Origin: Streptomonospora salina
Lineage (GTDB): Bacteria; Actinomycetota; Actinomycetes; Streptosporangiales; Streptosporangiaceae
Assembly (NCBI RefSeq): GCF_014204715.1
Contig: NZ_JACHLY010000001.1
Coordinates: 2,015,001 to 2,079,000, forward strand
Direction: 5' to 3'
DNA length: 64,000 nt
Below the pieces are notes generated by a model, which was not told the DNA's origin, made no database searches, and saw only the letters and a program-made list of their open reading frames with translations. Below are positions 25,443 through 45,607 of the stretch, piece after piece (positions within the stretch are counted from its first letter, which is position 1; every line of letters begins with the position of its first letter). A program made the translations under genes and the position numbers.

Positions 25443-26654
25443 ATGGACCCCGTCTCCCGCCCCGCAGCGCGCGTCCGCCTCGCACTCGACGACCCCGCAA
25501 CCAACACCAAGTGTCTTCGCGAGGCTGGCCCGGTGGCTGCGGTCGAGCTAGCCGGCCTGCACCTGTGGGCCGCCTGCAGCGACGAGGCCCTGCGCACCGT
25601 CCAAGGCGACACCGGCGGCACGTTCCTGCGCGGGGCCGAGAACTGGCCCGCCCTCCAGCGCGGCGAGGTGGATCCCGCGCACCCGCTGGTCGCTCTGGTG
25701 GGCGACCTGCGCAGCCTGCTCGCCCTCAACGGCACCGAACACGAACAGATCCGCCGGCTGCTGCGGCCCGCCTTCACCCCGGCCGCCGTCAAACACCGCC
25801 GGGGCCGGATCGAGGCCATCACCGACCGCCTCCTAGACGAAATGGCACAGGCCGGGCCGCGGGCGGACCTGCTGGACTTCGCCTGGCAACTGACCGTGGA
25901 GGTGTTCCTCGACCTGTTCGGCCTCGGCCCCGAGCACGCCGAACGCTTGAGCGACATCACCACCCGCGCCTTCGCCCTCTCCGACCCCGGCGTGCACGCG
26001 GAGGCCCGCACCTACATCGCCGACCTGCTCGACCACACCCCACCCGACACCGCCAGCGGCGACCTGCTCTCCCTGCTGGCCACATCCCAGCGCAACGGCG
26101 ACGTGTCACGGGCCGACGCCGTCGACACCTGCTACCTGCTGATCGTCGCCGGCTTCGACACCACCCTCGGAGCCCTACTCAACGCCGCCCAGGCCCTGGC
26201 GACCCACCCCGACCAGCGCGACCTCGTCCTCTCAGGACAGGTGGGCTGGGGGTCGGCGGTCGAGGAGTGCCTGCGCCGCTACAGCTCCGTGGCCACCCTC
26301 CCGATCTGTTTCACCACCCGCGAGGTCGAGCTGTGCGGCACCAAGCTGCCCGCCGGGGCCGGGGTGCTGCTGGGCATTTCCGCCGCCGGACTCGATCCCC
26401 ACCGGTGGCAGGACCCGGAGGTCTTCGACGTCACCCGCAACCCCAAGGGGCATCTGGCCTTCGGCCACGGCATCCACTACTGCCTGGGCGCCCACCTCGC
26501 CCGCCTCGAACTGGAAACGGCCCTGTCGCGGCTGTTCACCCGCTTCCCCCACCTGCAACCGGCCGGCCAGGTGCCGCCTCTGCCCAGCTTCATGATCCGC
26601 CGCCCCGCCAGCCTGCCCGTGAACCTGACCCCCGGCACCGCCCGAGCCGCCTGA
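25443..26654 (+). CDS. Cytochrome P450, CYP154-like
   Basis: The 403-residue P450 has all hallmarks: I-helix VAGFDTT (about 236), K-helix EECLRR (EXXR), and haem loop FGHGIHYCLGAHLAR with Cys347. It is preceded by a perfect AGGAGG 4 nt before ATG 25443, so it is independently translated despite overlapping the open frame of the first P450. CYP157/CYP154 pairs usually accompany conservon G-protein genes in Streptomyces; no conservon genes are in this window. It is a candidate oxidase for the local pathway. Confidence 0.92.
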   Translation: MDPVSRPAARVRLALDDPATNTKCLREAGPVAAVELAGLHLWAACSDEALRTVQGDTGGTFLRGAENWPALQRGEVDPAHPLVALVGDLRSLLALNGTEHEQIRRLLRPAFTPAAVKHRRGRIEAITDRLLDEMAQAGPRADLLDFAWQLTVEVFLDLFGLGPEHAERLSDITTRAFALSDPGVHAEARTYIADLLDHTPPDTASGDLLSLLATSQRNGDVSRADAVDTCYLLIVAGFDTTLGALLNAAQALATHPDQRDLVLSGQVGWGSAVEECLRRYSSVATLPICFTTREVELCGTKLPAGAGVLLGISAAGLDPHRWQDPEVFDVTRNPKGHLAFGHGIHYCLGAHLARLELETALSRLFTRFPHLQPAGQVPPLPSFMIRRPASLPVNLTPGTARAA

Positions 26655-26722: not shown

Positions 26723-27553
26723 ATGCCCGACCACACACCCGCTCCCCCGGCCGGCGTCGACCCCTACACCCCCAGCGCCGCCCGCCTCTACGATTTTTAT
26801 TTGGGCGGCAAGGACAACTACGCCGCCGACCGTGAGGCCGGCACCGAGCTCCTGGAACGTATCCCCGAGCTGCACAGCACCGCCCACGCCAACCGGTACT
26901 TCCTGCGCCGCGTCGTGCGCCACCTGGCCGCCGAAGCCGGCATCGACCAGTTCTTGGACATCGGCTCCGGGCTGCCCACCCAGGACAACGTCCACCAGGT
27001 CGCCCAGCGCCACGCCCCCGGCGCCCGCGTCGTCTACGTCGACAACGACCCCATCGTGCTCGCCCACGCCCACGCGCTCCTAGCCGAGGACCCCGCCACC
27101 ACCGCGGTCGCCGAGGCCGACCTGCGCGACCCGGCCGGCATCCTCGCCCACCCCCAGATCCGGGGCATGATCGACTTCAGTCGGCCGGTCGCCGTGCTGA
27201 TGATCGCCGTCCTGCACTTCCTCACCGACGAGGACCGCCCCTACGAGGTGGTGGCCGCGCTGCGCGACCGGCTGTGCCCGGGCTCCTACATCGCCGTCTC
27301 CCACCTGGAGAACGAGACCAGCCCCCAGCGGGCGGCGTTCATGGAGCAGGTCTATGCCCGCAGCTCCGCCACCTTGAAAGGGCGCAGCCACGCCGAGATC
27401 CGCCGGTTCTTCACCGGGATGGAACTCGTGGAGCCCGGTGTGATGCCCATCTCCCAGTGGCGCCGCGACCCCACCGAGCCCTACTGGCCACCCGAGCAGG
27501 CCTGGGGCGACGGCGGCCTCGGCCGCCTCACCCAACGGCCGCCCGCGGGCTGA
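26723..27553 (+). CDS. SAM-dependent methyltransferase, DUF574 (PF04672) family
   Basis: The 276-residue protein has the family start YTPSAARLYDFYLGGKDNY, a SAM-binding loop FLDIGSGLPT, acidic strand-2 end VVYVDNDPIV, and RPVAVLMIAVLHFL. The DUF574 family is greatly expanded in actinomycetes; substrates are unknown. It follows the P450 by 68 bp on the same strand and may modify the same product. Confidence 0.9.
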   Translation: MPDHTPAPPAGVDPYTPSAARLYDFYLGGKDNYAADREAGTELLERIPELHSTAHANRYFLRRVVRHLAAEAGIDQFLDIGSGLPTQDNVHQVAQRHAPGARVVYVDNDPIVLAHAHALLAEDPATTAVAEADLRDPAGILAHPQIRGMIDFSRPVAVLMIAVLHFLTDEDRPYEVVAALRDRLCPGSYIAVSHLENETSPQRAAFMEQVYARSSATLKGRSHAEIRRFFTGMELVEPGVMPISQWRRDPTEPYWPPEQAWGDGGLGRLTQRPPAG

Positions 27554-29882: not shown

Positions 29883-30067
29883 TCACAGATGGAGCGTCGG
29901 CTCCGCTCACTCGACAGCGAATCTGAAAAGACCGAGGCACACTCGCGCCATCCACGACCTGGAATATTCTACGTTCTGCGCAGCACATACGACACTTGTG
30001 CACAAGACAGACGTTCGAATATGTTCAGGGCTCACGAAAGTGGTCGTCTGGCGAGACGGGGAATCTG

Positions 30068-30751
30068 GTGGACGACAAGATACCGCAGCGCATGCTCTTG
30101 CTGGACGCCTGCGGTGTTCTCGTGGGCGAGCCGATGGGCCCGCTGTTTTCAGCAGTCGCGGCCTCCTGCGGTTCCCGTGTCGACCAAGTCCAGCTTCTTT
30201 TCCGTGATCATCTTCGGGATGATCTGTGGAGCGGCCGGATCTCCACGAGAGATTTCTGGGACCGCTTCGCTGCAGCGGTAGGACACGACTGCGCACCGCG
30301 TCAGTGGCATACGACGATCGTCGATTCCATGGCCCCACTGCCTGCAGGGGATTCCGTCTCCGGCTGGGCCCAGCGTGCGCGCTTGACGCTTGTCTCCAAC
30401 CACCGACACGAATGGCTGCTCCCCGTGCTGCACAAGCTCGGGATTGAGCGGCACTTCCACGCGGTTGAGATCTCCAGCGTCACCGGTCTCATCAAGCCCG
30501 ATTCCGCAGCGTTTCTGCACGCCCTCGACGGGCGCTGCCCGCGTTCGGCCTTGTATGTCGATGACAAGGCCGCAAACGTGCGGGCGGCACGCGATGTGGG
30601 CATCAGCAGTCTCCAAGCCGACCCGGCGGGAGACTGGATCGACGAAGTAGAAAGGTGGCTCGGCTCTGCATCCGACAGCGCGCACCTTCGATCGGACGTT
30701 CGTCGAGCAGATCCCTCAGATCACCGCGAGTCTCTCCAAAGAAGTCGATGA
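30068..30751 (+). CDS. HAD-superfamily hydrolase-like protein lacking the second motif-I Asp
   Basis: Start GTG 30068 (GGGGA upstream) gives 227 residues. Motif I is LLLDACGVL, so the usual DxD is D-A-C and the general acid Asp is lost. Motif II LTLVSNHRH, Lys in GLIKPDSAAF and motif IV ALYVDDKAANVRAA are present. Family members with this change may be phosphatases with altered activity or non-catalytic. The last 35 residues are Arg/Ser-rich and overlap what looks like the N-terminus of the next gene, so a frameshift near 30670 is possible. Confidence 0.75.
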   Translation: MDDKIPQRMLLLDACGVLVGEPMGPLFSAVAASCGSRVDQVQLLFRDHLRDDLWSGRISTRDFWDRFAAAVGHDCAPRQWHTTIVDSMAPLPAGDSVSGWAQRARLTLVSNHRHEWLLPVLHKLGIERHFHAVEISSVTGLIKPDSAAFLHALDGRCPRSALYVDDKAANVRAARDVGISSLQADPAGDWIDEVERWLGSASDSAHLRSDVRRADPSDHRESLQRSR

Positions 30752-30776
30752 CCTCCCCGCGGTTGGCCGGCAATGG

Positions 30777-31502
30777 GTGTTCTACGGCAGCCGCCCCTTG
30801 GGCACGCAGAAGCCCGGCAGCGATCTGGACGCGCTCCTGGTCCTCGACGAGACGAACCAACTACCGCACCGGCGCAGCGCTACGTGGCGCCAGATCCCCG
30901 TCACCGTCTACGTCCTGGCCCGTGCCGACCTGTACTCGGACGGAAGCGACCGCGGATACGGCGGCTATTTCGCGCTGAAGCTGTTCGGCCCTTTCGTCAC
31001 CGACTCCCCGTCCGAGGAACCGGCACTGAGGACGCTGGTCGCCGATTTCCTGGCCCCGCTCGGCCACGCGGTGGCGAAGAGATGGGGGCAGTCGGTGTGG
31101 ACTGCCGACCAGCTTCTTGCCCACGGCCACCTGGCGTTCCTGGAGCTCTATCCCGATGCGGCCTCGTATCTGGCCCGCCATCACCGCCACCGCAACCTGT
31201 TCCTGGGTGTGTGGGCCCATCAGCGCGCCGCATACCTCGCCGCCCTGGAGGCCGGCGGCCACATCCACCGGGCGGGCGAGGGCCTCTGGCGCTATGACGC
31301 CGGATCCTCTATCGACGGATTCGCCCGGCAGCGTTCGCGGTGCGCAGCGCGGTTCTGGGCGTGGGGCGCGGTGTTTCACGACGCGGATCCCGGCTTCCCG
31401 GATCACTACTTCCACAAGGCCGACGCGGCGGCGACGCGGGGGCAGCAAGACGATGCGTATCGCTTCCTGGAGCGGGTCGTGGCGGAGGGAGTGCTGGCGT
31501 GA
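30777..31502 (+). CDS. Nucleotidyltransferase-fold protein (ANT/pol-beta type)
   Basis: Contains YGSRPLGTQKPGSDLDALLVLD, the GS-x(n)-SDxD motif of pol-beta nucleotidyltransferases, close to the N-terminus, then about 220 residues including a helical C-terminal half (HRNLFLGVWAHQRAAYLAAL). GTG 30777 is the first start in frame. Upstream the same frame reads TFVEQIPQITASLSKEVDD, a typical N-terminal helix with no start codon, which suggests a frameshift or a non-standard start near 30670. It would transfer NMP to an unknown acceptor. Confidence 0.75.
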   Translation: MFYGSRPLGTQKPGSDLDALLVLDETNQLPHRRSATWRQIPVTVYVLARADLYSDGSDRGYGGYFALKLFGPFVTDSPSEEPALRTLVADFLAPLGHAVAKRWGQSVWTADQLLAHGHLAFLELYPDAASYLARHHRHRNLFLGVWAHQRAAYLAALEAGGHIHRAGEGLWRYDAGSSIDGFARQRSRCAARFWAWGAVFHDADPGFPDHYFHKADAAATRGQQDDAYRFLERVVAEGVLA

Positions 31503-33475
31503 CGCCGGAGATCGAGTGGTGGCACCGGCGGTGCAACCAGGTTACGGAGCGGCGCGAACAGCAGCGTGTCGGCCAGTTCGGGCTGCATCCGGTGGCCTCG
31601 CATCCTCCCGGCGATGCGGCCTTACCCGGCGAAGTATGGGCCTGGCAGGCTCATGCTCGAACGGAGCTCGGCGCCGAGGCCACGTCGCCGGTCCGGGTCG
31701 GGTTCGCGGGCGACCGCCCCCATGCCGGCCATCTCGGATTGGCGCGGGCGGCCGGTGAACTCGCCGGCCATGCGGGCACGGTTCTGGCGTTCGACGCCTC
31801 CGGTGACGGCGACCGGCGGATGGTCGAGGCCTTCCGGGCCGCTGTGGACCACTTCACCGACCGAGCGCCCCACGTCCATGTCGTGGACGAGGCTCCCGAA
31901 CTGCGCAGCTTCCAACGGCGGGCCGCCCGCGCGCTGCCGTTGGAGCGCCTGCGGCGAATCTACGGGTTCGACGCGAAGACGCCCCTGACGGTGCCGCTCG
32001 ATGTCGCCGACATGCTCGGCTTCTTCCTCTTCAACCCGGCCGGGAGTGATGCGCCCGGAGTCGCGCTGGTGGATGCGCTCCAAGCGCCGCACTCGGCGGC
32101 GCTCCGGCACTGCGCCCGGGCCATCGGTGCGACGCCTCCGGTGCTGCTGTACCGGCGCCTGTTTCCCCACCTGCGCCGCGCCGGCCAGCGCGGGAGCGTG
32201 CGCGAACCGTCCTCGGTGATCTTCGTCGACGACAGTGAGGAGACTGTGCGCTCCAAGTTCGCTACGGCGATCACCGGTGGTGGAGCCAGTGTCGCCGAAC
32301 ACCGCGCCTTTGGCGGGGATCCGGTGCGCTGCTCGGCGTTTGCCACCGTGGAACTACTGTGCTCCCCGCAGCGGGCCCGCACCGTCCTGGCGCAGTGCCG
32401 GGCCGGCCACGTCACGTGCGCGCAATGCAAGGACCACAACGCCGACGCGGTCGTGGCGGGCCTGAAATCGATCACCGACCGGCTCCCCACGGCCCGCGCA
32501 GGGGTCTCTTCCGGAGTAGGGCCCGCGGTGCAGCGCGCCGTCCCGACGCTTTATCGGCCTCCCCCGCGCACGTGCGGCGACCTGGAGGCGGAGATCGCCA
32601 CGCGCACCCAGGTGACCGCTGAACAGGTCGTGGCGGCCAACGGCTCGACCGAGGTCATGGACTGGCTGTTTCGCCTGCAGGCCCGGCCCGGGGCCCAGGT
32701 GGTGGCGACCGAACCGGCGTTCGAGCTCTACCGCGATCTCGCCCAGCGCCACGGGTTCGAGTATGTCCCGGTGTCTTGGGACCCGGCGACGTTCGCCCCC
32801 GACCTCGACGCGGTGGAGCAGGCGATCGATGAACGCACCCGGCTGGTGGTCATCGAGCTACCGCATTCGGTGTCCGGGGCCGCCGTTTCCCTCGATGCCG
32901 TCATCGAACGGCTGCTCCCCACGCTGCCCGCCGGCGCGCGCCTGCTCCTCGATCTCGCCTACGCCGACTTCACCGTTCCACCGCCCCGCATCGACACCGG
33001 CCTCCTCGAGACCCATCCCGAGATCGTCGCCTTCGGCACCCTGTCGAAGGCGCACTGCCTGCTGGGCGCACGCGTGGGCTACGGCCTCACTGCGGCACCG
33101 CTGGCCACCCGCCTGCGCGAACAACGTCTGCCTTATGGCCTCGATGCGCTCGCCACGGCCGCGGCACACGCCGCACTCGCCGACGAGCAACAGGTGCAGC
33201 GCACCCTCCAGGCCAACCGCACCGCACGGGCGCGCCTGTGCCGGGTTCTCGACGAACACGGCATCGCCTATATCCCCGGCCAGGCGAATTTCCTCCTGAT
33301 CAATCTCGCGGACCGCTATCGGCCGGTGGTCGATAGACTTCGAGCGCGGAACGCCCGGTATCGGGATGGTCACCGGTGGGATCTTTCCGGGTGGATTCAG
33401 GTCCATCTGATCGATATCCCTACCGTCGCCCCGGTCATCGACGCGATCGAATCTGCTGGGCCGGGCCGACCGTGA
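31499..33475 (+). CDS. Degenerate TrpRS-like domain fused to HisC-like PLP aminotransferase
   Basis: GTG 31499 overlaps the previous stop (GTGA), GGAGGGA upstream; 658 residues. Residues about 60-330 resemble archaeal/eukaryal TrpRS: HIGH-like HAGHLG, then IFVDDSEETVRSKF, TGGGASVAEHRAFGGDP and a final CAQCK. KMSAS is replaced by REPSS, so ATP-dependent activation is doubtful. Residues about 345-655 are a class I/II aminotransferase like HisC: NGSTEVMDWLF, and GTLSKAHCLLGARVGY with PLP Lys517. The usual NPTG is SVSG, and the C-terminal substrate Arg (R.S.G) is IQVHLI. Substrate is probably not histidinol phosphate. Confidence 0.8.
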   Translation: MTPEIEWWHRRCNQVTERREQQRVGQFGLHPVASHPPGDAALPGEVWAWQAHARTELGAEATSPVRVGFAGDRPHAGHLGLARAAGELAGHAGTVLAFDASGDGDRRMVEAFRAAVDHFTDRAPHVHVVDEAPELRSFQRRAARALPLERLRRIYGFDAKTPLTVPLDVADMLGFFLFNPAGSDAPGVALVDALQAPHSAALRHCARAIGATPPVLLYRRLFPHLRRAGQRGSVREPSSVIFVDDSEETVRSKFATAITGGGASVAEHRAFGGDPVRCSAFATVELLCSPQRARTVLAQCRAGHVTCAQCKDHNADAVVAGLKSITDRLPTARAGVSSGVGPAVQRAVPTLYRPPPRTCGDLEAEIATRTQVTAEQVVAANGSTEVMDWLFRLQARPGAQVVATEPAFELYRDLAQRHGFEYVPVSWDPATFAPDLDAVEQAIDERTRLVVIELPHSVSGAAVSLDAVIERLLPTLPAGARLLLDLAYADFTVPPPRIDTGLLETHPEIVAFGTLSKAHCLLGARVGYGLTAAPLATRLREQRLPYGLDALATAAAHAALADEQQVQRTLQANRTARARLCRVLDEHGIAYIPGQANFLLINLADRYRPVVDRLRARNARYRDGHRWDLSGWIQVHLIDIPTVAPVIDAIESAGPGRP

Positions 33476-33528: not shown

Positions 33529-34587
33529 ATGACAGATCAGCGGATGCTCACCGGCGACCGCCCCACCGGGAAACTGCACCTGGGCCACTACGTCGGCAGC
33601 ATCGCCAACCGGGTCAAACTGCAGCACCAGTACGAGACCTGGCTCATCCTCGCTGATCTGCACATGCTCACCACCAAGAACGCCCGCAGCGACATCGACG
33701 AGATCTCGGGCAACGCCCGCCAGATGGTGCTGGACTCCCTGGCCGCCGGCATCGAACCCGAACGCGCGACGTTCTACCTGCAGTCGGCCATCCCGGAGAT
33801 CGGCGAACTCAACACGCTCTTCCAGAACCTGATCACCGTCCCGCGGCTGGAGCGCATCCCCAGCCTGAAAGACATGGCCAGCGACGCCTCCAAGGAGGAA
33901 ATGCCCTACGGGCTGCTCGGCTATCCCGTCCTGCAGGCCGCCGACATCCTCTGCGTCAAGGCCAACGTCGTTCCGGTCGGCAAGGACAACCACGCCCACG
34001 TGGAGGTGACCCGGGAGATCGCGCGGCGCTTCAACCACCTCTACGGCGAGACGTTCCCCGTGCCCGAACTCGTCACCAGCGAGGTCTCGACCCTGGTGGG
34101 CACCGACGGCCACGCCAAGGCCAGCAAGTCGCTGGGCAACGTCATCTACCTCGCCGACAGCGCCGAGGACGTCCGCAAGAAGGTCGCGGCCATGTACACC
34201 GACCCCAACCGGGTCCGGGCCGACGTCCCGGGCACCGTCGAGGGCAACCCGGTGTTCATCTACCACGACACATTCAACGACGACCCGGACCAGGTCGCCG
34301 ACCTGAAGGAGCGCTACCAGGCGGGCACGGTCGGCGACGTCGAGGTCAAGGACAAGCTCGCCGCAGCCATCAACCGGTTCCTCGACCCGATCCGCGAGCG
34401 CCGCGCCGCCTTCGAGGCCCAGCCCGGCCTCGTGGACCAGATCATCGTCGAAGGCACCGAGCGCACCCGCCGCGAAGTCCAACAGGTGGTGTTCGAGGTG
34501 CGCAAGGCCATGGGGCTGGCCGGGGCCTACAACCAGCTGCGCCGCAAGGCCGAGCGGGCCCAGAAGAAGGCGGCTGCCGAGTCCTGA
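33529..34587 (+). CDS. trpS: Tryptophanyl-tRNA synthetase (bacterial type)
   Basis: The 352-residue enzyme from ATG 33529 has HIGH-type GDRPTGKLHLGHY (about 7-19), ADLHMLTT, PVGKDNHAHVEVTREIA and a KMSKS-type KASKS (about 198-202). It appears intact. The gene follows the aaRS/aminotransferase fusion by 53 bp on the same strand. Actinomycetes often have two TrpRS; auxiliary copies can give resistance to indolmycin-type inhibitors and can sit in inhibitor biosynthetic clusters. The active-site His of ADLH is kept, so the classic H43N-type resistance change is absent. Confidence 0.93.
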   Translation: MTDQRMLTGDRPTGKLHLGHYVGSIANRVKLQHQYETWLILADLHMLTTKNARSDIDEISGNARQMVLDSLAAGIEPERATFYLQSAIPEIGELNTLFQNLITVPRLERIPSLKDMASDASKEEMPYGLLGYPVLQAADILCVKANVVPVGKDNHAHVEVTREIARRFNHLYGETFPVPELVTSEVSTLVGTDGHAKASKSLGNVIYLADSAEDVRKKVAAMYTDPNRVRADVPGTVEGNPVFIYHDTFNDDPDQVADLKERYQAGTVGDVEVKDKLAAAINRFLDPIRERRAAFEAQPGLVDQIIVEGTERTRREVQQVVFEVRKAMGLAGAYNQLRRKAERAQKKAAAES

Positions 34588-34601: not shown

Positions 34602-35669
34602 ATGATCCCCCCGCTTCTCGCCTCTACGGTTGCCATGAGCACGGGGGGTGCGGATCGTGCGCGCAGCGGATCCTCGGGGGCCGCAGTGCACATCCTCGAA
34701 TGCGCCGACGGCTCGCGGGTGGCGGTGAAGGTCGCCGCGTCCCCGCGGGTCTCGGCCACGGGCCAGGCGGCGGCCCGGGCACAGATCGCCCCGTTCTTCG
34801 GCCAGCGCCTGCCCCGCGTCCTGTATGCGGGACGCCACCAGGACACGGACGTGCTGGTCACCGAGTGCCCCTCCCCGCGCACGTTCGCCGACGCGGCGCG
34901 CGGCCACGGCCCCGCACCCGACCTGCTGGCGACGTGGGCTCAGATCGTCGACCACCTGGTGGGCGTGTGGCAGCAGTCAGCTCAGCCCGGGTACAAGCCG
35001 GACCGCGCGACCCGCAACCATCAGCGCCGGCTCGAGCGCGCGATCGACGGCCTCACCTACGCCTTCGGCGTACTCGAAACCGAGCTGAGCCGCCGCCACC
35101 GGTTCATCGTCAACGGCTCAGACCTGGGCACGTGGGAACAGCTGCAACGGCGGCTGGCCGCAATGGCTCCTCCGGACTTTCGTGTCGCCTGCCTGGGCGA
35201 TCCCCAGCCAGCCAACGTCCTGCTCACACCACAGCTCGACTGGTACCTCATCGACTGGGAATGGTCCGGGCGCCACCACGATTGGCGCATGATGGCCAGC
35301 CACCTGCTCGGATGGTGGTTCGTTGAGGATCTCCTCGCCCACGCCCGCGGCACGATCGCCGTCGGAAGCGGCCGCGTCATCCTGGACTATCCGCCACCGG
35401 AGTCGGCCGCCATACGGCCGTGGCTCGCCCGTCCCACACGCGCCTTCCACACGATGACCACCTGCCGGACCTTCGACCGCGACCATGCCGCTCTGTTCCT
35501 GCATACGGCCATGCTGCTGCTGCGCGAAATCCCCCGTACCGCGGCCAAGAACAGGCAGCTCTTCGCCCCGCTCCTCGGCGAGGCCCTGCACCTGGTCGAT
35601 GCGGCCGACCACGGAGCACCCCACCCGCTCCTACCCGCCGTCCCCCCGTCCTCTAGGTCCACGTGGTGA
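34602..35669 (+). CDS. Aminoglycoside phosphotransferase-fold protein with altered catalytic loop
   Basis: About 345-355 residues, start at ATG 34602 or 34635 (no clear ribosome-binding site at either). Kinase-like N-lobe (SRVAVKVAASPRV with a possible Lys), then VACLGDPQPANVLLTPQLDWYLIDWEW. This corresponds to the APH HGDxxxxN and IDWE motifs, but the catalytic-loop His is Leu. Asp and Asn are retained, so it may still phosphorylate a small molecule. It lies 14 bp after trpS and overlaps the next gene, so it probably belongs to the same operon. Confidence 0.75.
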   Translation: MIPPLLASTVAMSTGGADRARSGSSGAAVHILECADGSRVAVKVAASPRVSATGQAAARAQIAPFFGQRLPRVLYAGRHQDTDVLVTECPSPRTFADAARGHGPAPDLLATWAQIVDHLVGVWQQSAQPGYKPDRATRNHQRRLERAIDGLTYAFGVLETELSRRHRFIVNGSDLGTWEQLQRRLAAMAPPDFRVACLGDPQPANVLLTPQLDWYLIDWEWSGRHHDWRMMASHLLGWWFVEDLLAHARGTIAVGSGRVILDYPPPESAAIRPWLARPTRAFHTMTTCRTFDRDHAALFLHTAMLLLREIPRTAAKNRQLFAPLLGEALHLVDAADHGAPHPLLPAVPPSSRSTW

Positions 35670-36577
35670 CCACCTTCGGACTCGCCCTGCCGCACTACGA
35701 CGCCCTTTTCCCCGACCGCACCATCACCGGTGCCCGGCGCACCCAAGCAGCGCTCGACTACGCCCGCCACACCGAAGAGCGCGGATTCGACCAGATCTGG
35801 GTCTCCGACCACCTCGGCCTTGAACTCGATACAGGTCCGCGGCGGCTCTCGCCCGACTGCTGGAGCCTGCTCGCCGCCCTCGCGACAGCCACCGACCGCA
35901 TCCGCCTGGGCTCACTCGTCACCAACGCGGCCTTGCGACCGAGCGCCCTGCTGGCCCGTCAGGTCGCCACCGTCACCGACATCGCCGGCCCTCGCGTCGA
36001 CCTGGGCCTCGGGGCCGGATGGAACACCCGTGAGTTCGTCGAAGTGATGCGCTCGATGCCCCCTGTCAATGAACGGCTCCAAGCGGTCGAAGACAGCGCC
36101 GACACGGTCCGTCGCCATCTCGGCGCTAACGCTCCTCCGATCTGGGTCGGAGGCAAGCGCCGCGGGATCCTGACGGTCGCCGGGCGCAAAGCCGACGGAT
36201 GGAACCTCGCCTGGGACCCCACACCGGAGACCTACCACCAGAGATCGTGCATGCTCGCCGACACAGCCAGAGAAGCGGGACGCACCCCTTCCGGGATCCA
36301 GCACTCGATCGGACTCACCACGTTCCTCGGAACCGACGAACGCGATCTCCGCCGCCGCTGGAAGCACCTGCAGCGATGGGTCCCGGGCGGCCACCTGGAC
36401 GATGCCGACTTCGACGTCTGGCGCCAGCGCGGTCTCGTCGGTACTCCAGCCGAAGTCCGCAACCGGATCTCCCGCTGGACTGAACGCGGAGTCAGCCACA
36501 TCGTCTGCGCCTTCGGTATCCCCTTCGGCATCTGCGGTGACGAGCAATTAGACCTCTTCGCCGAGACCATCAGGTAG
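35666..36577 (+). CDS. LLM-class F420-dependent oxidoreductase
   Basis: The 303-residue protein is a luciferase-like monooxygenase fold: FGLALPHYDALFP at the start, ERGFDQIWVSDHLGLE, RIRLGSLVTNAALRPSALLARQVATVTDI, and RVDLGLGAGWNTREF, the nonprolyl-cis/F420-binding signature. GTG 35666 overlaps the previous stop by 4 bp; GTG 35663 is also possible. F420-dependent members reduce or oxidise C=N or C=C bonds in secondary metabolism. It is the last gene of the rightward run; a 6-bp stem (CTGTTG/CAACAG) at 36589-36614 may help termination. Confidence 0.88.
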   Translation: MTTFGLALPHYDALFPDRTITGARRTQAALDYARHTEERGFDQIWVSDHLGLELDTGPRRLSPDCWSLLAALATATDRIRLGSLVTNAALRPSALLARQVATVTDIAGPRVDLGLGAGWNTREFVEVMRSMPPVNERLQAVEDSADTVRRHLGANAPPIWVGGKRRGILTVAGRKADGWNLAWDPTPETYHQRSCMLADTAREAGRTPSGIQHSIGLTTFLGTDERDLRRRWKHLQRWVPGGHLDDADFDVWRQRGLVGTPAEVRNRISRWTERGVSHIVCAFGIPFGICGDEQLDLFAETIR

Positions 36578-36766: not shown

Positions 36767-37402
36767 ATGACCCGTATGATCCCTGAGTTTGACGTAGAGA
36801 TCTTCCACGAGTACGTGCTGACCGACCTCCGCACCTCCCTGACGGCCGAGGATCTCGCCGAAGGCTTCACCGAACATCAAGGCTATGAGTGCACCGCTCT
36901 GGCTACCTGGGAAGACGTCAAGATTTGCCTCCATGAGGAGGCACAGGTCCTGGACCAAGCACGTGGGTCGCAGGCCGTGGATGGGCTGGAAGAGGCCATA
37001 GACGCGCTCTCTGAGAGCGATGATCTGCAGTATGCCGAGCACTTGCAGGCACTTTGGGGTAACGACGCCGGAGCCGCAAGCCTTGCCTTGGCCCTCAGCG
37101 CAGCCCGGACTGCCACTTTCTACTCTTGTTCCGGCAGCCTCGACACGAACCACCACGCCGACCATCCGCAGGTCGGGGTCGTTCCAGACGTGGGTCGAGC
37201 CAAGTTGATCGCGGAACTTGCCGAGGGGACGAACTGCGGCATTTGGCAACACGACGGGCGCTGGTACATCTACGCGAAATCGGTTACCGACCTCCACGCC
37301 TTGTCGCGGTTGCTCCTGAAAGAACGCGAAGCTTTCGACGCCCTCCCGTCTCCTCCATGGCTCAATGGCCTTCCAGAGCTCCTCGATGCCTCAGTCTGGT
37401 AA
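36767..37402 (+). CDS. Hypothetical protein at the left edge of the defence island (211 aa)
   Basis: Unknown soluble protein, acidic, with no membrane segment. Start ATG 36767 or 36776; no strong ribosome-binding site. It has Cys/His and aromatic residues near the C-terminus (NCGIWQHDGRWYIYAKS). Codon use is less G+C-biased than in the biosynthetic genes to the left, marking a change of DNA segment. It might be an immunity-type or regulatory protein, but nothing shows this. Confidence 0.6.
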   Translation: MTRMIPEFDVEIFHEYVLTDLRTSLTAEDLAEGFTEHQGYECTALATWEDVKICLHEEAQVLDQARGSQAVDGLEEAIDALSESDDLQYAEHLQALWGNDAGAASLALALSAARTATFYSCSGSLDTNHHADHPQVGVVPDVGRAKLIAELAEGTNCGIWQHDGRWYIYAKSVTDLHALSRLLLKEREAFDALPSPPWLNGLPELLDASVW

Positions 37403-37697
37403 CGCCTTCGCTCGGGACTGTTGCACTCACCTCGCAAGGCACACAGTGTCGTCACGACTCGAACATGTCTTCCGTCACCTCAGCGCCATGACGCAGAGCC
37501 CCCGGCCGACGCAGTCACCAGCATCCTCTATCCTTGTGTGCTGTAACGCACCAGAACGCGGGTTCGAACCAGTTCGCGACTTCTACGCCCACAGCCAGCC
37601 TTCGGAAAACCGGAGGTTATCAAGGCGTCCTTGCCCTTGCCGGGGTCTTCGTGATCTCCTGGTGCTCGTCGTTCTCACTGGTCTGGAGGTGCGTACT
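37403..37697. promoter_or_regulatory. 295-bp leader before the C5 methyltransferase
   Basis: The methyltransferase frame is open through this region, but the translation is low-complexity and Cys/Arg-rich. The first good start signal is GGAGG at 37685-37689 before GTG 37698. The stretch therefore is best read as promoter and leader DNA. GGTTCGAACC near 37561-37571 looks like a tRNA T-arm but has no surrounding tRNA. Confidence 0.4.
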
Positions 37698-39695
37698 GTG
37701 CAGGAGTCGCACTACGGCGTACCCCTTGAACGCAGCGACCAACTGAAGCTCAAGCGCCACCGGAACAGTTGCAGGCCCGAACGCTTCGCTCAGTGGCTTG
37801 AGGGGTTCGGCAAGGATCGCCGTTTGGCCATTGATCTCTTTTCCGGAGCAGGCGGACTGAGTCACGGGCTCCGGCAAGCTGGGTGGACCACCGCCGCTGC
37901 AGTCGACTGCGACAAGCGGGCCCTGGAGACCCATGCGGCGAACTTCCCTGGCATGAGCCTCCACATGGACCTTGGAGACCCAGAGGAGCGGGACCGTCTC
38001 GAAGAGATCCTGGAGCCCGCGCAAGGCAGGATCGACCTTGTGGCCGGCGGTCCTCCCTGCCAACCGTTCAGCCGGGCCGGGCGCAGTAAGATCCGCAGCC
38101 TGGTGGATCACCACGGACGTGATCCTCACGACAGGCGCAAGGAACTGTGGGGCGCGTACCTCGACATCGTGAAGCGGATCAAGCCCCGAGCCGTCCTCAT
38201 GGAGAATGTCCCGGACATGGGTTTGGGCGACGACTTCTTCGTGGTACGCACGATCGAGCAGCAGCTGGAAGAGCTCGGATACGCAACGCAGGTGCGGCTG
38301 GTGGACGCTTGGCGCTATGGAGTCCCACAGCATCGGAAGCGGCTGATACTGCTGGCTCGGAACGACGTTGAGCAGTTCAAGTGGCAAGACGAAGCATCCG
38401 AGGAGAACCGGACTACGCTGCAGGACGCGATCGGTGACCTGCCGCATCTGAACGTGGTGCCGACCGAACGTGTCGGCGAACGCAGGATGGACTACGACAC
38501 CCCCTCAGAGGAGCTCTCCGGCTTCGCGAAGGACATGCGCAAGAGGGCCGAGGCCAGCGTCGTCTGGGACCACATGACCCGGCGAGTCCGTGAGGACGAC
38601 TGGGCCATCTTCGACGACATGGACTCGAAGACCCTGTATTCGGACGTCGATCCGAACCTCCAGCGCTACAGCACCAAGCACTTCACAGACAAGTACAAGA
38701 AGCTGGATTGGGGCGACCTCAGCAGGTCGATCACGGCCCACATCGCCAAGGACGGCTACTGGTACATCCACCCGTCCCAGAACCGTACGCTGACCGTGCG
38801 CGAGGCCGCGCGCGTGCAGACTTTTCCTGACAGGTTCCGATTCGCGGGAACGCGTAGTGACGCCTTCCGACAGATCGGCAACGCCGTACCGCCTCTCCTC
38901 GGTAAGGCTGCAGCCTCCGCGCTGCTTCCCTCTGGAGAGGCAGAGAACGACGGCAACCCAGTGGGGCTTCGGCCACGCTGGAGGAAAGTCCGGCAAGCCT
39001 TGACTTCCTGGGCCAAAGAACGCCGACAGGGCGAAGACTGGTATCAACTACCGCACCTGTCTCCTGTGCATGCGGCTGTCGTCGCCGTGCTGGCCGGAAC
39101 CCGGTTGCGCCGTCACCAGCTCCGGAGGATGGTCGAGGCCGTTCAGGGGAACGCATCCCTGACGAAGCATGCTCTGCAGACTCTTCTCGACGCCGCTCCC
39201 ACCGCCGCAGCTCGGGCCCGCATCGACCGATTGACCCCGGTCGTGGACAAGCCAAGTGTGTGGCACGACGAGAATCGGGACGAGGTGCCGACGAGGGTCG
39301 GTATGAAGCCAGCCGAGGCACGACTCTACCGGCTACTGCTCAACGAAGACCTCCTGTGGGTCGGCCAAGGGGCCATCCGAGTCGCAGCCCGCCTCAACGG
39401 CACTGACTCGGATCGCACGAACAGGCTAAGTGACGGCCGTGTGGACTTGGTGAAGCTCGTCGGTGCCGGAGAAGACGCACCTCTCCGTATGGCCGCGCTC
39501 CGTTTGGTCGGAAACACCGTGTGTCGGGCGGCTAGGCCGCTCTGCGATGAGTGTCCGCTGAATCAGTACTGCGCTGACAGGCATAGCGTCTCGGAGAAAG
39601 ACCTGTTCAGCGATGCGGCGGGGGAGTCGAGCGGTCACGACACAATTTCCGCTCAAACTCGGGTTACGGGATCTCACACTGCTCAGCAACGCTGA
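37698..39695 (+). CDS. DNA cytosine-C5 methyltransferase with C-terminal EndoIII-like Fe-S motif
   Basis: GTG 37698 with GGAGG 8 nt upstream gives 665 residues. C5-MTase motifs: I AIDLFSGAGG (about 44), IV GGPPCQPFS (about 117, catalytic Cys), VI ENVPDMG, VIII QHRKRLILLA, X RQIGNAVPPLLG (about 390). About 230 extra residues follow, ending in C609-X6-C616-X2-C619-X5-C625, exactly the [4Fe-4S] spacing of EndoIII/MutY-type HhH glycosylases. The enzyme probably protects self DNA for the convergent defence operon. The glycosylase-like tail lacks an obvious HhH catalytic Asp and may serve DNA binding. Confidence 0.9.
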   Translation: MQESHYGVPLERSDQLKLKRHRNSCRPERFAQWLEGFGKDRRLAIDLFSGAGGLSHGLRQAGWTTAAAVDCDKRALETHAANFPGMSLHMDLGDPEERDRLEEILEPAQGRIDLVAGGPPCQPFSRAGRSKIRSLVDHHGRDPHDRRKELWGAYLDIVKRIKPRAVLMENVPDMGLGDDFFVVRTIEQQLEELGYATQVRLVDAWRYGVPQHRKRLILLARNDVEQFKWQDEASEENRTTLQDAIGDLPHLNVVPTERVGERRMDYDTPSEELSGFAKDMRKRAEASVVWDHMTRRVREDDWAIFDDMDSKTLYSDVDPNLQRYSTKHFTDKYKKLDWGDLSRSITAHIAKDGYWYIHPSQNRTLTVREAARVQTFPDRFRFAGTRSDAFRQIGNAVPPLLGKAAASALLPSGEAENDGNPVGLRPRWRKVRQALTSWAKERRQGEDWYQLPHLSPVHAAVVAVLAGTRLRRHQLRRMVEAVQGNASLTKHALQTLLDAAPTAAARARIDRLTPVVDKPSVWHDENRDEVPTRVGMKPAEARLYRLLLNEDLLWVGQGAIRVAARLNGTDSDRTNRLSDGRVDLVKLVGAGEDAPLRMAALRLVGNTVCRAARPLCDECPLNQYCADRHSVSEKDLFSDAAGESSGHDTISAQTRVTGSHTAQQR

Positions 39696-39769
39696 GTGTC
39701 ACCCGTTCGACATTGCACTCCCACACACGGAGCGCAATCACCTTCCGGCTTCAGCCGCGTCAGCCGACA

Positions 39770-41779
39770 CTACTGTTCCGGGGTGAACCCCATCGTCAGG
39801 GCCTCGCGCCGGATATGGATCGCCTGCGCCGCCTGCTGCTGCGGGATCCCTTGGCCTAGCTCCACACGCCTCCCGACGTGCTGCGCCAACTGTCGCTGCG
39901 AAGGCTCCAGATTGTGCGTCTCCTTCGCCCACCGCTCGAGTGCGTACCACTCCTGCGCCGAGATCTGTGCCGCCGCGTCTGCCACTCCCTCGTCCTCCCC
40001 CGCCTCGCCTGCAAGCGCTTGCTCGTCCAACGGGTGCTTGCGCAGTTCCTCCTCCAGCTCCCTGGACACGGTCCAGGGGAGTCGGGCGACCGCGTCCCAA
40101 CATGCAGGCTTCTTCGCCCACTCTCCTACGTGGTTACCCTCACGTGGCGTGACCACCACGTTCATGACGTGCGGGCACAAGTCGTCGATCGCGGCTTCGA
40201 GTGCCGGCGAGATCCGCTGCTCACGCCAGATCCTATCCAGATCGATCCGCCTGTCCGTCGCGAGTGAAAGGCGGGCTGTCGTGTAGGTAGTGATCATGCT
40301 CTTATAGCTGCCTGCCAGATGCGCTGCAGCTATGCGATCGACGGACTTAAACAGGATGGCCATGGCGATCACCCGTTGGCAATACCGGACGTCCACAAGC
40401 GGAGGCGTCAACTCGATCCTGCTCATGAACACGGCGAAGTTCTTCTGTGCCCCCCGGCTGACGTGGAACGGCAACTGGTGCCAGGACTGGACGAACTTCG
40501 CGAGGTCAGCCTTCGTGAACTTCTGCCTTGTGGGGTTGACCTTCTTGAAGGCGCGCTGTCTCGCTGGGGTGCGTGCTTTGGCCACCTCGTCCGTGTACTG
40601 ACCGCGTGCCCGCTCGTAGAACCAGTGCGTTTCCTGGCCGCTGCCGTCCGTCACCGGAGTCCACAGGGAACGTGTGATCCGTTGGACAGCCACGTGGTAC
40701 TCGTGGTTTGAGCTGAAGTCGACCAGGGTCACGCGGTTCTGGGTGTTGGAGTACTCGGAGATCCTCGGCACGATGTCCGCAAGCCGTTCGGGCGATACCT
40801 CCGTGAGCTTCATCTGTACGGTGACCTGCGACAGGTCCACCTTGTCACGGGTCGATGCATAATGCAGCGACGCCGTCGTCTGGCCGCCGTTCACGATCTG
40901 GATCCCGTGGACGCGAGAGATACCGGTGCGCTCACCACCCGGCCCGTACACGAAGTCGACCTTGGAGGCGGTGGTCGTGAGGCCGTTGTTGTATGCCAGA
41001 AACCGTCCGGGCGCGTTCAATAGTGTTTCCCTGATCCCCCTATTCACCGCGCCACGGGCTTGGAGGAACGAACGGACGTTGAGCTCTAGGAGACGAGGGC
41101 CGTACTCGCCATACAGCTGGGCCAGTCTTTGGCCGGGGATAGCAGCGAGAGCGACCGAATGATCAGGCTCGTCGCTGGGAACCGAGACGCAGGGCAGCGG
41201 AGGGTCGAAGGAAACCACGATGGGTTCACTGATGCTGCCGGACGTAGCGTGACGGTGCAGGCGTGCAAGATCCCAAACCTCATGGGTCACCGGGAGACCG
41301 TCGAACTCGGTGGCGGGTATGAGAGCGCCGGTGCTGACGCGGTTGCTGAGGAGGAAGAGCCGGATTCGCTGGACCTCGGTGAGTGTCTTCTCCACTGCCG
41401 CGCACATGTCGTACACGTCGAATGCCTGGTCGATGTTGTGGCGCAGGCCATCACGGCAACGCCGTACGAACGTCAGTAGCCGACGGAAAGCTTTCTCGGT
41501 ATCCGCCTTCGTGAGCTTCGAGTCCATCGGGTCCAGGACGAACTCAGTAACGAACAGATCGAGGCACTCACCGGACTCTCCGAGACCGTACCCGTGAACG
41601 AGGTGCCCGTGTGCCATGTGATAGGCGCTGAAGGTGTTTGAGGCAACTCCTGCCTCCTCCAAGTCCTCGAAGACGCGGCGAGTGAACGCCTCAGCCGTCG
41701 TGGTGCCCTCGGCGTCGGCTGTGGCCTCCGCTTCTGCCGCGACGTCGCGGGCGTAGGCAGACAGACCGAGTTCAGTCAC
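39770..41779 (-). CDS. AIPR (abortive-infection phage-resistance) family protein
   Basis: The 669-residue protein contains the AIPR family signature around SRVHGIQIVNGGQTTASLHYA and NVRSFLQARGAVNRGIRETL. The N-terminal 200 residues are helical with no enzyme motif. It starts at GTG 41779, overlapping the DUF4420 stop by 8 bp, so it is the last gene of the operon. AIPR proteins are found with MORC/Z1 restriction-type systems; the biochemical role is not settled. Confidence 0.85.
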   Translation of the reverse strand: MTELGLSAYARDVAAEAEATADAEGTTTAEAFTRRVFEDLEEAGVASNTFSAYHMAHGHLVHGYGLGESGECLDLFVTEFVLDPMDSKLTKADTEKAFRRLLTFVRRCRDGLRHNIDQAFDVYDMCAAVEKTLTEVQRIRLFLLSNRVSTGALIPATEFDGLPVTHEVWDLARLHRHATSGSISEPIVVSFDPPLPCVSVPSDEPDHSVALAAIPGQRLAQLYGEYGPRLLELNVRSFLQARGAVNRGIRETLLNAPGRFLAYNNGLTTTASKVDFVYGPGGERTGISRVHGIQIVNGGQTTASLHYASTRDKVDLSQVTVQMKLTEVSPERLADIVPRISEYSNTQNRVTLVDFSSNHEYHVAVQRITRSLWTPVTDGSGQETHWFYERARGQYTDEVAKARTPARQRAFKKVNPTRQKFTKADLAKFVQSWHQLPFHVSRGAQKNFAVFMSRIELTPPLVDVRYCQRVIAMAILFKSVDRIAAAHLAGSYKSMITTYTTARLSLATDRRIDLDRIWREQRISPALEAAIDDLCPHVMNVVVTPREGNHVGEWAKKPACWDAVARLPWTVSRELEEELRKHPLDEQALAGEAGEDEGVADAAAQISAQEWYALERWAKETHNLEPSQRQLAQHVGRRVELGQGIPQQQAAQAIHIRREALTMGFTPEQ

Positions 41780-42782
41780 GGGAGCCTCCGATCAGTTCGG
41801 TCACCTCGTCTGTCGAGGCCTGGTAGCCGTCAAGACCCGAGGTGCTCACGTGGTACGCGCAGTCGCCGACGCCCTTGCGGAGGTCCGCTTCAACGATCCG
41901 CGGAAAGTCCCCCCGTACGTGCCAGAACTTCAAGTCCCGGAGGGTGTATCTGGGCTCTTGGTAAAGGTCACGCCGGCTGGGCAGATATCCGGCCTGTATA
42001 AGACGCCCTTCAAGCCAGGCACGGACGGCTGGGCTGGTGATGGCGTCTCGGACACCGTCCACGATCCGGTTCAGGCTCTCCCCGGATCCGCCGCGCCGCT
42101 CGTCGACAAGCGCCAACGCCAGCATGAGTGCAGGCGTACCTGTGTCGTCCAATTGCCGTTCGCCGGCAATGCGGACACTTTGGGGACGCTTCGCCGTGCT
42201 CGTCTTCACCTCGACCGCCCCTCCGCGCGTCTGGAAGTCCTGGTGTGCGCCGCTCGGCCCCGTCCACGCCTCGACGGCGTCGGCTTCGGCAAGGACAGGC
42301 AGAAAGTGCGTCCGGAGCACGAGAAGCTCACCCACCAGCCCTCGGCGGCTGTCCGGACTCAGACCCTCACGGCTGACGGCGCGCAGGAGTTCCTGCCAGC
42401 GCTCGAACCTGTCCACAGCTGCGGTCAGGGCTTCCGCAGCACCCGACGACTCGCGAACTGTCTCAGCCACATCGGTCACGAGCGGATTGAACACCTCACG
42501 CAGGTCGTTCGCGGTGAGTACCACTTGCAGTTCGTACTCGAGCCGACTCACAGCACTCAGGTTCATCTCCAGACCAGCAGCACGGGGCAGCTTCCCCACG
42601 GCGCGGACGATGTGGTCCGCGGAGCGGGCGTCGGACCTGAGGACGAGCATGCGCTGGTGTCCGGGATGGGAGACAGTGAGAAAGACATCCAGAGGCGCGT
42701 CCGGGTGCAGGCGCAACCGCGACCACCCGCCGGTTGTCTGAGGCGCCTCCAACTCGGTCCAGTCTCCCTCCGTGACGGTCAC
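41772..42782 (-). CDS. PD-(D/E)XK motif protein (DUF4420)
   Basis: The 336-residue protein has the nuclease core GAHQDFQTRGGAVEVKTS (about 200-218), a D...EVK motif of the PD-(D/E)XK fold. The N-terminal half is beta-rich. It starts at a GTG overlapping the Z1 stop (GTGA). As the likely DNA-cleaving subunit it would act with the Z1 and GHKL ATPases upstream. Confidence 0.85.
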   Translation of the reverse strand: MTVTEGDWTELEAPQTTGGWSRLRLHPDAPLDVFLTVSHPGHQRMLVLRSDARSADHIVRAVGKLPRAAGLEMNLSAVSRLEYELQVVLTANDLREVFNPLVTDVAETVRESSGAAEALTAAVDRFERWQELLRAVSREGLSPDSRRGLVGELLVLRTHFLPVLAEADAVEAWTGPSGAHQDFQTRGGAVEVKTSTAKRPQSVRIAGERQLDDTGTPALMLALALVDERRGGSGESLNRIVDGVRDAITSPAVRAWLEGRLIQAGYLPSRRDLYQEPRYTLRDLKFWHVRGDFPRIVEADLRKGVGDCAYHVSTSGLDGYQASTDEVTELIGGSRD

Positions 42783-45547: not shown

Positions 45548-45607
45548 TGCGGTCTCCGGGGGTGGGAGCGGTACCGAGCAGAGTAGGGGCGAGCACTGAC
45601 AACAAGC

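What the first reader, a model, noticed from the sequence alone, without database searches (positions are those of the whole stretch)
31499..33475. Degenerate archaeal/eukaryal-type TrpRS domain fused to a HisC-like aminotransferase
One 658-aa ORF joins a TrpRS-like domain (TGGG..EHR..GGDP and a HIGH-like HAGHLG, but KMSAS reduced to REPSS) to a PLP enzyme with Lys517. The aminotransferase has lost the NPTG Asn and the substrate-binding C-terminal Arg. I know no described enzyme with this fusion. The pair may bind an amino acid or aminoacyl moiety and transaminate it.
Basis: partly seen in the sequence, partly recalled or inferred. Interest (0 to 1): 0.85.

Follow-up and report, generated by a model that had tools for sequence, protein, structure and literature searches.

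The report
TrpRS-like enzyme fused to aminotransferase
A rare actinomycete protein joins a remodelled tryptophan-tRNA-charging domain to a vitamin B6 (PLP) enzyme inside a conserved six-gene cassette that also carries a second TrpRS, which suggests an unstudied tRNA-dependent pathway for a small bioactive molecule.

Summary
Window 31499-33475 encodes one 658-aa protein: an archaeal-type TrpRS domain followed by a HisC-like PLP domain. It is not a misfusion: the same fusion is a single open frame in two other actinomycete genera (70% and 51% identity), and both halves evolve under purifying selection. It lies in the same six-gene order in the three genomes: HAD hydrolase, nucleotidyltransferase-like protein, fusion, bacterial TrpRS, APH-like kinase, luciferase-like oxidoreductase. 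My searches found no unfused version. The cassette is rare: 3 genomes among at most about 1,400 searched.

The TrpRS half is remodelled rather than decayed. The PLP half keeps Lys, Asp, Tyr and phosphate-binding residues but has lost the NPTG Asn, the C-terminal Arg and the N-terminal NENP arm.

Best reading (inferred): it works like the AcmF/AcmD pair of ascamycin biosynthesis. The cassette TrpRS makes Trp-tRNA and protects the host; the TrpRS-like half transfers or holds the tryptophanyl group; the PLP half makes or modifies the acceptor. The three copies lie within 5 kb of phage-defence genes, so an anti-phage role remains open.

The parts
31499..33475 (+). Fusion gene, 658 aa: TrpRS-like domain (about residues 1-330) plus HisC-like PLP domain (about 336-658)
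   Evidence: one open frame in three genomes
31499..32503 (+). TrpRS-like half: N-terminal QFG arm, HxGH (residues 75-78), Gln195, RGSVR in place of KMSKS (231-235), GGD (272-274), C..CK (307-311)
32504..33472 (+). HisC-like PLP half: GST (382-384), PHSVSG in place of PNNPTG (455-460), Asp485, Tyr488, Lys517, Arg525, Gln634 in place of the C-terminal Arg
33529..34587 (+). Complete bacterial-type TrpRS (352 aa), second TrpRS of the genome; 34% identical to the housekeeping copy
   Evidence: (TIGR00233 over cut-off)
34602..35669 (+). Kinase-like protein of the APH/choline-kinase type (GDPQPxN..LxDWEW)
   Evidence: APH_3p E 6e-5, far below cut-off; choline kinase E 0.009; no Pfam match; motif by eye
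35663..36577 (+). Luciferase-like (probably F420-dependent) oxidoreductase, last gene of the conserved cassette
   Evidence: PF00296; below cut-offs
30666..31502 (+). Nucleotidyltransferase-like protein (FYGSxPLG..SDLD); start not certain, CTG at 30666, conserved from about 30684
   Evidence: (PF01909 below cut-off)
29996..30751 (+). HAD-family hydrolase (motif I DACGV), first gene of the conserved cassette; start may be GTG 30068

Best explanation
The protein is a working specialised-metabolism enzyme in a sporadically distributed six-gene cassette. Shown: the fusion, its conservation in three genera, the fixed gene order, the retained HxGH and PLP-binding residues, and the replaced KMSKS, NPTG Asn and C-terminal Arg. 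Inferred: the cassette TrpRS charges tRNA-Trp and is an inhibitor-tolerant copy. The TrpRS-like half can no longer activate tryptophan well with ATP; it binds the tryptophanyl group of Trp-tRNA (or a tryptophanyl nucleotide) and passes it to a small acceptor. The fused PLP half makes that acceptor's amine or modifies the bound amino group, on a substrate whose carboxylate is masked, which is why the carboxylate-binding Arg is gone. The nucleotidyltransferase, kinase, HAD hydrolase and luciferase-like enzyme build, hold inactive and tailor the rest. The product would mimic Trp-AMP and inhibit TrpRS. It works like AcmF/AcmD and SbzA, with the transferase fused to a PLP enzyme.
For: Same gene order in three genomes of three genera: HAD, NTase-like, fusion, TrpRS, kinase, luciferase-like. 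dN/dS is 0.26 (N half) and 0.31 (C half) window to G417, and 0.43 and 0.33 window to G1063. The active-site blocks of the TrpRS half are the most conserved part of that half. A TrpRS gene sits in each cassette: intact in the window and G1063, in two frames in the G417 assembly. In the window genome it stands beside a housekeeping TrpRS that is only 34% identical. Precedent: AcmF lacks ATP- and alanine-activation residues, uses Ala-tRNA made by AcmD, and AcmD is the more resistant AlaRS (PMC12945691, section 4). SbzA keeps HYGH, has AMSKA for KMSKS, and transfers Ile from Ile-tRNA (PMC12945691 passages; PMC9437257 section 14). An auxiliary TrpRS gives indolmycin resistance in S. griseus (PMC6804068 passages).
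Against: No activity, product or tRNA binding was tested. No PKS, NRPS or RiPP precursor is among the six conserved genes, and no transporter is. The Glu that contacts the amino group of Trp in canonical TrpRS (recalled) is Gly or Ser here, so tryptophan need not be the ligand. Tolerance of the cassette TrpRS to any inhibitor is not shown. The three copies lie near phage-defence genes, which a plain antibiotic cassette does not predict. The one structure model (single sequence, mean pLDDT 37.9) gives no support. SbzA still charges tRNA weakly, so an altered KMSKS does not by itself exclude activation.
Confidence: 0.42

Rival explanations
1. The TrpRS-like half is only a sensor: it binds tryptophan, Trp-AMP or uncharged tRNA-Trp and switches the PLP half on or off, as HisZ (a HisRS paralogue) regulates HisG.
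For: HisZ has no adenylation activity and regulates an amino-acid pathway enzyme (PMC9437257 passages). The fusion has lost canonical KMSKS. Both parent families are homodimers (recalled), so a regulatory fusion is easy to picture.
Against: The HxGH and Gln/RGSVR blocks are more conserved than the rest of the domain, more than a loose sensor needs. A paired TrpRS in the same operon fits a tRNA-using enzyme better.
Confidence: 0.18
2. The TrpRS-like half still activates an acid with ATP, but a different one (a modified tryptophan or another aromatic acid), and hands the adenylate to a nucleophile, as MshC (CysRS-like) does with Cys. The PLP half makes the amine or the unusual acid.
For: HxGH and the Gln of the archaeal QDPH motif are kept, and KMSKS becomes RGSVR with a positive charge at its first place. 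MshC precedent (PMC9437257 section 14).
Against: No Lys is left in the KMSKS loop, which normally stabilises the ATP phosphates (family knowledge).
Confidence: 0.2
3. The cassette is an anti-phage system or makes an anti-phage metabolite: it lies near defence genes in the three genomes.
For: Window: a C5 methylase 0.8 kb downstream, then MzaE, D, C, B up to 47080. G417: type I restriction genes 4.7 kb away and a pPIWI-RE module 17-25 kb away. G1063: a pPIWI-RE gene 1.4 kb from the last shared cassette gene. Searched with PF13032, G417 has one such locus in its genome and G1063 two.
Against: None of the 4 of 6 cassette proteins tested (fusion, HAD, NTase-like, kinase) matches PADLOC at E 0.01. 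The control is weak and not reassuring: among 127 proteins from nine 20-kb stretches of G000, 19 PADLOC families were hit at E 1e-25. One stretch, L041, surely holds a type I restriction gene; other hits (PD-Lambda-1, mad3, DolB, PDC-M37B, DinG, UvrD/GajB, Cas12-like) were not resolved to stretches or checked. So the base rate is at least 1 of 9 and may be much higher. Metabolic enzymes dominate the cassette.
Confidence: 0.12
4. Misfused or decaying gene: a chance joining of two ordinary genes with no function.
For: Replaced catalytic motifs in both halves. The neighbouring TrpRS is frameshifted in the G417 assembly.
Against: The fusion frame is open in three genomes, 51-70% identical, dN/dS well below 1, with invariant RGSVR, PHSVSG and Gln634. 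No separate versions found.
Confidence: 0.02

Closest known systems
AcmF/AcmD, ascamycin biosynthesis (AlaRS-like transferase with paired AlaRS)
   Same: A noncanonical aaRS-like protein with lost activation residues beside a genuine, auxiliary aaRS of the same amino acid in one cluster (PMC12945691, section 4)
   Different: AlaRS, not TrpRS; described there as a truncated AlaRS-like protein, with no PLP domain; activity shown there, not here
SbzA, SB-203207 biosynthesis (IleRS-like transferase)
   Same: Class I aaRS-like enzyme keeping the HIGH motif with an altered KMSKS (AMSKA) that uses aa-tRNA
   Different: IleRS family; uses Ile-tRNA made by the host IleRS; no PLP domain mentioned in the passages seen; keeps weak charging activity
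Archaeal/eukaryal TrpRS (PRK12285; solved 3a04, 3jxe)
   Same: N-terminal QFG arm, HxGH, QxPH, TGG..E..GGD, C..CK
   Different: KMSKS replaced, Glu of the SDDE motif lost, C-terminal end shortened and fused to a PLP enzyme
Histidinol-phosphate aminotransferase HisC (TIGR01141)
   Same: Fold-type-I PLP domain with Lys, Asp, Tyr, the phosphate loop and the Arg after the Lys kept
   Different: NENP arm, NPTG Asn and C-terminal Arg lost; scores 164.8 against a cut-off of 276.55
FrbH, FR-900098 biosynthesis
   Same: A nucleotidyl-transfer enzyme in antibiotic biosynthesis; that it is joined to a PLP decarboxylase is recalled, not read
   Different: MobA-like domain acting on a phosphonate (PMC6697681 passages), not an aaRS
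HisZ
   Same: aaRS paralogue without adenylation serving an amino-acid enzyme (PMC9437257 passages)
   Different: Class II (recalled), separate subunit, regulatory
Cyclodipeptide synthases
   Same: TyrRS/TrpRS-like fold using aa-tRNA (PMC9437257 section 14)
   Different: No CDPS family match here; HxGH is kept here

Membership tests
Class I TrpRS (archaeal/eukaryal type) | Sequence match over the catalytic domain | tested here: met
   PF00579 23.5 bits (cut-off 21.1) in the window copy but 16.1 bits, below cut-off, in the G417 copy; not run on G1063; PRK12285 E 7e-21, below its cut-off; 3a04 E 4e-17 with the three-row profile, residues 150-313 only
Class I TrpRS (archaeal/eukaryal type) | HIGH motif | tested here: met
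   HAGH, HTGH, HLGH in the three copies
Class I TrpRS (archaeal/eukaryal type) | KMSKS/KMSAS motif | tested here: not met
   RGSVR in the three copies
Class I TrpRS (archaeal/eukaryal type) | Class I aaRS fold | tested here: inconclusive
   single-sequence model with mean pLDDT 37.9; fold inferred from sequence only
Class I TrpRS (archaeal/eukaryal type) | Aminoacylation of tRNA-Trp | not testable with these tools
   needs enzymology
HisC / class I-II aminotransferase | PLP Lys, Asp and Tyr of the active site | tested here: met
   Lys517, Asp485, Tyr488, invariant in three
HisC / class I-II aminotransferase | NPTG Asn | tested here: not met
   PHSVSG in the three; 11 of 11 HisC-type proteins aligned have NPTG (11 of the 13 HisC-type loci in hand, L003 and L010 left out)
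HisC / class I-II aminotransferase | C-terminal substrate-binding Arg | tested here: not met
   Gln in the three; 11 of 11 HisC-type proteins aligned have Arg
HisC (TIGR01141) | Score over the equivalog cut-off | tested here: not met
   164.8 against 276.55
AcmF/SbzA-type aa-tRNA-dependent transferase | aaRS paralogue with altered activation motif in a cassette together with an aaRS of the same amino acid | tested here: met
   the G417 aaRS is frameshifted in the assembly
AcmF/SbzA-type aa-tRNA-dependent transferase | Transfer of the aminoacyl group from aa-tRNA to a metabolite | not testable with these tools
   needs the acceptor and enzymology
Cyclodipeptide synthase | CDPS family match | tested here: not met
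   not among the 5 Pfam families listed at E 0.1
Known anti-phage system | Match of cassette proteins to defence models | tested here: not met
   0 hits for the 4 of 6 cassette proteins given; the TrpRS and luciferase-like proteins were not given

The most novel reading that the evidence does not exclude
The PLP half acts directly on tryptophanyl-tRNA held by the TrpRS-like half, as SelA or SepCysS act on their aminoacyl-tRNAs (recalled). It would convert Trp-tRNA into an altered aminoacyl-tRNA that is either the building block of a TrpRS inhibitor or a translation poison in an anti-phage island, with the cassette TrpRS as supply and immunity. To my knowledge that would be the first PLP enzyme fused to its own aaRS-derived tRNA-binding domain.
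Probability: 0.12. Interest if true: 0.92.

Novelty: new variant of a known kind. Interest (0 to 1): 0.72.

Why it matters
aaRS paralogues repurposed for metabolism are a small, mechanistically rich group. This one is fused to a PLP enzyme, which gives the substrate hand-over a built-in partner. The cassette is small (6.6 kb), conserved and has a built-in candidate resistance gene (TrpRS), so product, target and mechanism can be tested in one expression experiment. If the product inhibits TrpRS it would be a lead against a target with few natural inhibitors (recalled); if it acts on phages it would link aaRS-derived metabolism to defence islands.

Tried and rejected
Misfusion or pseudogene: rejected, since three genomes have one open frame with purifying selection.

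Cyclodipeptide synthase: no family match.

Known defence gene: no PADLOC match for the four cassette proteins given. Defence-island enrichment: the control does not settle it. It scanned 127 of 132 genes picked by a GC3 rule from nine 20-kb stretches of G000 (five over 1200 aa were dropped), E limit 1e-25; 19 families were hit, and only the type I restriction hit was traced to a stretch (L041).

Dedicated tRNA or riboswitch: no tRNA in the window, L019, L020, L031 or L033; one tRNA-Ser in L032, about 11 kb from the G1063 cassette. No Rfam match at gathering score in the window, L019 or L031.

Genome-contig scan: its exact 8-residue patterns would miss the 69% identical G417 copy, so its lack of fusion hits means little. 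Of its two loci, L017 is a TyrRS; L018 looks the same by eye. Viral scans found no relatives. Plasmid protein searches: the whole fusion matched 386 records, none over 80% of its length, the 20 listed being annotated mostly as HisC or other aminotransferases; the N half matched only 4 haloarchaeal TrpRS; the kinase and NTase-like proteins matched nothing.

Structure: the single-sequence model had mean pLDDT 37.9 and was not used. L009 looked like a fusion by open-frame length but is hisC overlapping hisD (named by eye). L010 has a 556-aa open frame that I did not examine; its match covers only the PLP half. L021 and L022 were first taken for TrpRS and are TyrRS. The HAD rows were computed out of frame and are dropped. 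The window row of the NTase alignment was out of frame; one search replaces it.
Full report
What is there. The ORF at 31499-33475 reads 658 aa without a stop. Its N-terminal half matches TrpRS of the archaeal/eukaryal type: Pfam PF00579 just over cut-off, NCBIfam PRK12285 at E 7e-21 but under cut-off, solved TrpRS 3a04, 3jxe and 3tze by sequence, and TrpRS of 4 haloarchaea as its only matches in the plasmid collection. Its C-terminal half matches HisC-like PLP enzymes: PF00155 E 2e-35, TIGR01141 E 2e-48 but under cut-off, and solved HisC 3cq5. A longer frame opens at 31340, but homologues start at 31499 and the gene overlaps its upstream neighbour by GTGA.

The fusion is real and conserved. 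In G417 (same family, another genus) the same fusion is 70% identical over 660 residues, in a 720-aa open frame. In G1063 (another family; that it is Streptomycetaceae is my inference) it is 51% identical, in a 719-aa open frame. Genomes with the fusion: 1 of 394 in the class sample (the other 11 matching genomes matched the PLP half only), 2 of 341 in the family, 2 of 345 in the order (largely the same genomes), 1 of 396 in the phylum sample, 1 of 394 in the family of G089, 1 of 21 relatives of G1063, itself included. Handles end at G1418, so at most about 1,400 distinct genomes were searched and three carry it. No unfused TrpRS-like half was seen at these thresholds.

It is in the same cassette in the three. 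Order and strand: HAD hydrolase, NTase-like protein, fusion, TrpRS, APH-like kinase, luciferase-like oxidoreductase. Identities window to G1063 are 51% (HAD), 55% (NTase-like), 51% (fusion), 85% (TrpRS), 49% (kinase), 57% (luciferase-like). In a sample of 100 genomes of the family the NTase-like protein occurs in 2, the two with the fusion. The flanking genes compared differ, so the six genes are the conserved unit. In G1063 a TylF-type methyltransferase overlaps the last gene. G417's cassette TrpRS is frameshifted in the assembly, but so is its other TrpRS (two pieces in different frames at C29), so I read this as assembly error; this is an inference.

Selection. Nei-Gojobori dN/dS for the N and C halves is 0.26 and 0.31 (window-G417) and 0.43 and 0.33 (window-G1063). 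In the TrpRS half 55 of 77 positions in the HxGH and Gln/RGSVR blocks are invariant against 90 of 258 elsewhere (Fisher p 2e-8). The blocks were chosen after seeing the alignment, so the p-value is a guide only.

Anatomy of the TrpRS half. Aligned with three haloarchaeal TrpRS (three of the four hits) it keeps the N-terminal QFG arm, HxGH, QxPH and TGG..E..GGD. It also keeps the C..CK seen in 3a04 and 3jxe. KMSSS becomes RGSVR, identical in the three copies, inside an Arg-rich stretch YRRLFP.LRR.G.RGSVRE. The Glu of the SDDE motif, which contacts the amino group of Trp in canonical TrpRS (recalled), is Gly or Ser. The C-terminal end is shortened where the PLP half begins.

Anatomy of the PLP half. 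Against 11 HisC-type proteins (L003 and L010 were left out of the 13 in hand) it keeps the glycine of the phosphate loop, Asp485, Tyr488, Lys517 and Arg525, so PLP binding is expected. It lacks the NENP arm, has PHSVSG for PNNPTG, RPPPR for RYPx, and Gln634 for the C-terminal Arg. Loss of the Arg that holds the carboxylate or phosphate (recalled role) suggests a substrate with a masked or missing acid group; this is an inference.

Second TrpRS. The genome has four PF00579 loci: this fusion, the cassette TrpRS, L025, which is a TrpRS over its NCBIfam cut-off, and L022, which is a TyrRS. L025, the presumed housekeeping TrpRS, is 34% identical to the cassette copy. The cassette TrpRS is over the TIGR00233 cut-off; its best solved relatives are 6ncr and TrpRS II 2a4m.

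How it most likely works. Two characterised systems have the same logic. In ascamycin biosynthesis AcmF, an AlaRS-like protein that lacks activation residues, takes alanine from Ala-tRNA made by AcmD, and AcmD is the more resistant AlaRS (PMC12945691, section 4 read). SbzA, IleRS-like with HYGH kept and AMSKA for KMSKS, moves Ile from Ile-tRNA to altemicidin, and still charges tRNA weakly (PMC12945691 passages; PMC9437257 section 14 read). Here a TrpRS-like half with HxGH kept and KMSKS replaced sits beside a TrpRS gene. I therefore think it most likely (0.42) that the fusion is a Trp-tRNA-dependent or tryptophanyl-nucleotide-dependent enzyme whose PLP half prepares or changes the partner, and that the product inhibits TrpRS. 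Auxiliary TrpRS as self-resistance is known for indolmycin (PMC6804068 passages). The steps from substrate to product are inferred.

Defence neighbourhood. Window: a C5 methylase and MzaE, D, C, B downstream. G417: type I restriction genes 4.7 kb away and a pPIWI-RE module further on. G1063: a pPIWI-RE gene 1.4 kb away. The control is weak: 127 proteins from nine 20-kb stretches of G000 hit 19 PADLOC families at E 1e-25; one stretch surely has a type I restriction gene and the other hits (among them PD-Lambda-1, mad3, DolB, DinG, UvrD/GajB and Cas12-like) were not resolved. So three of three is suggestive at best.

Literature. Of ten searches of the open library, seven looked for this fusion, cassette or setting and three for precedents. 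No listed title or abstract start described a TrpRS-aminotransferase fusion or this cassette; some searches listed only 15 of 65, 10 of 16 and 10 of 25 papers. The library holds only open-licence papers. I read passages of PMC6697681 and PMC6804068, and passages plus one section each of PMC9437257 and PMC12945691.

Verdict. Real, conserved, rare and, as far as these searches show, uncharacterised: a new variant of the known kind 'repurposed aaRS paralogue in a metabolic cassette', made unusual by the PLP fusion.

Noticed in passing
window 37365-47080: MZA-type phage-defence genes (MzaB, C, D, E by PADLOC) with a C5 cytosine methylase beside the cassette.
   Followed up: partly
L019:16767-19840, L020:1030-2673 and L020:9173-16951: G417 has type I restriction genes and an apparently split pPIWI-RE module (REase, DinG-like helicase, PIWI) near its cassette copy.
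   Followed up: partly
L031:1438-4161: A pPIWI-RE PIWI protein lies 1.4 kb from the cassette in G1063; that genome has a second pPIWI-RE locus elsewhere.
   Followed up: partly
window 30666-30684: The NTase-like gene has no ATG, GTG or TTG before its conserved region; CTG at 30666 is a possible start.
   Followed up: no
L019 about 9660; G417:C29:52621-53477: Both TrpRS genes of G417, the cassette one and the other one, look frameshifted, which points to assembly errors.
   Followed up: partly
L031:4765-5517: A TylF-type methyltransferase overlaps the last cassette gene in G1063; no such gene was seen there in the other two.
   Followed up: no
window 25443-26654 and 26723-27553: A frame with a partial cytochrome P450 match and a DUF574-type SAM methyltransferase lie upstream; G417 has relatives of the latter by blastp and a PKS acyltransferase domain upstream.
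   Followed up: no
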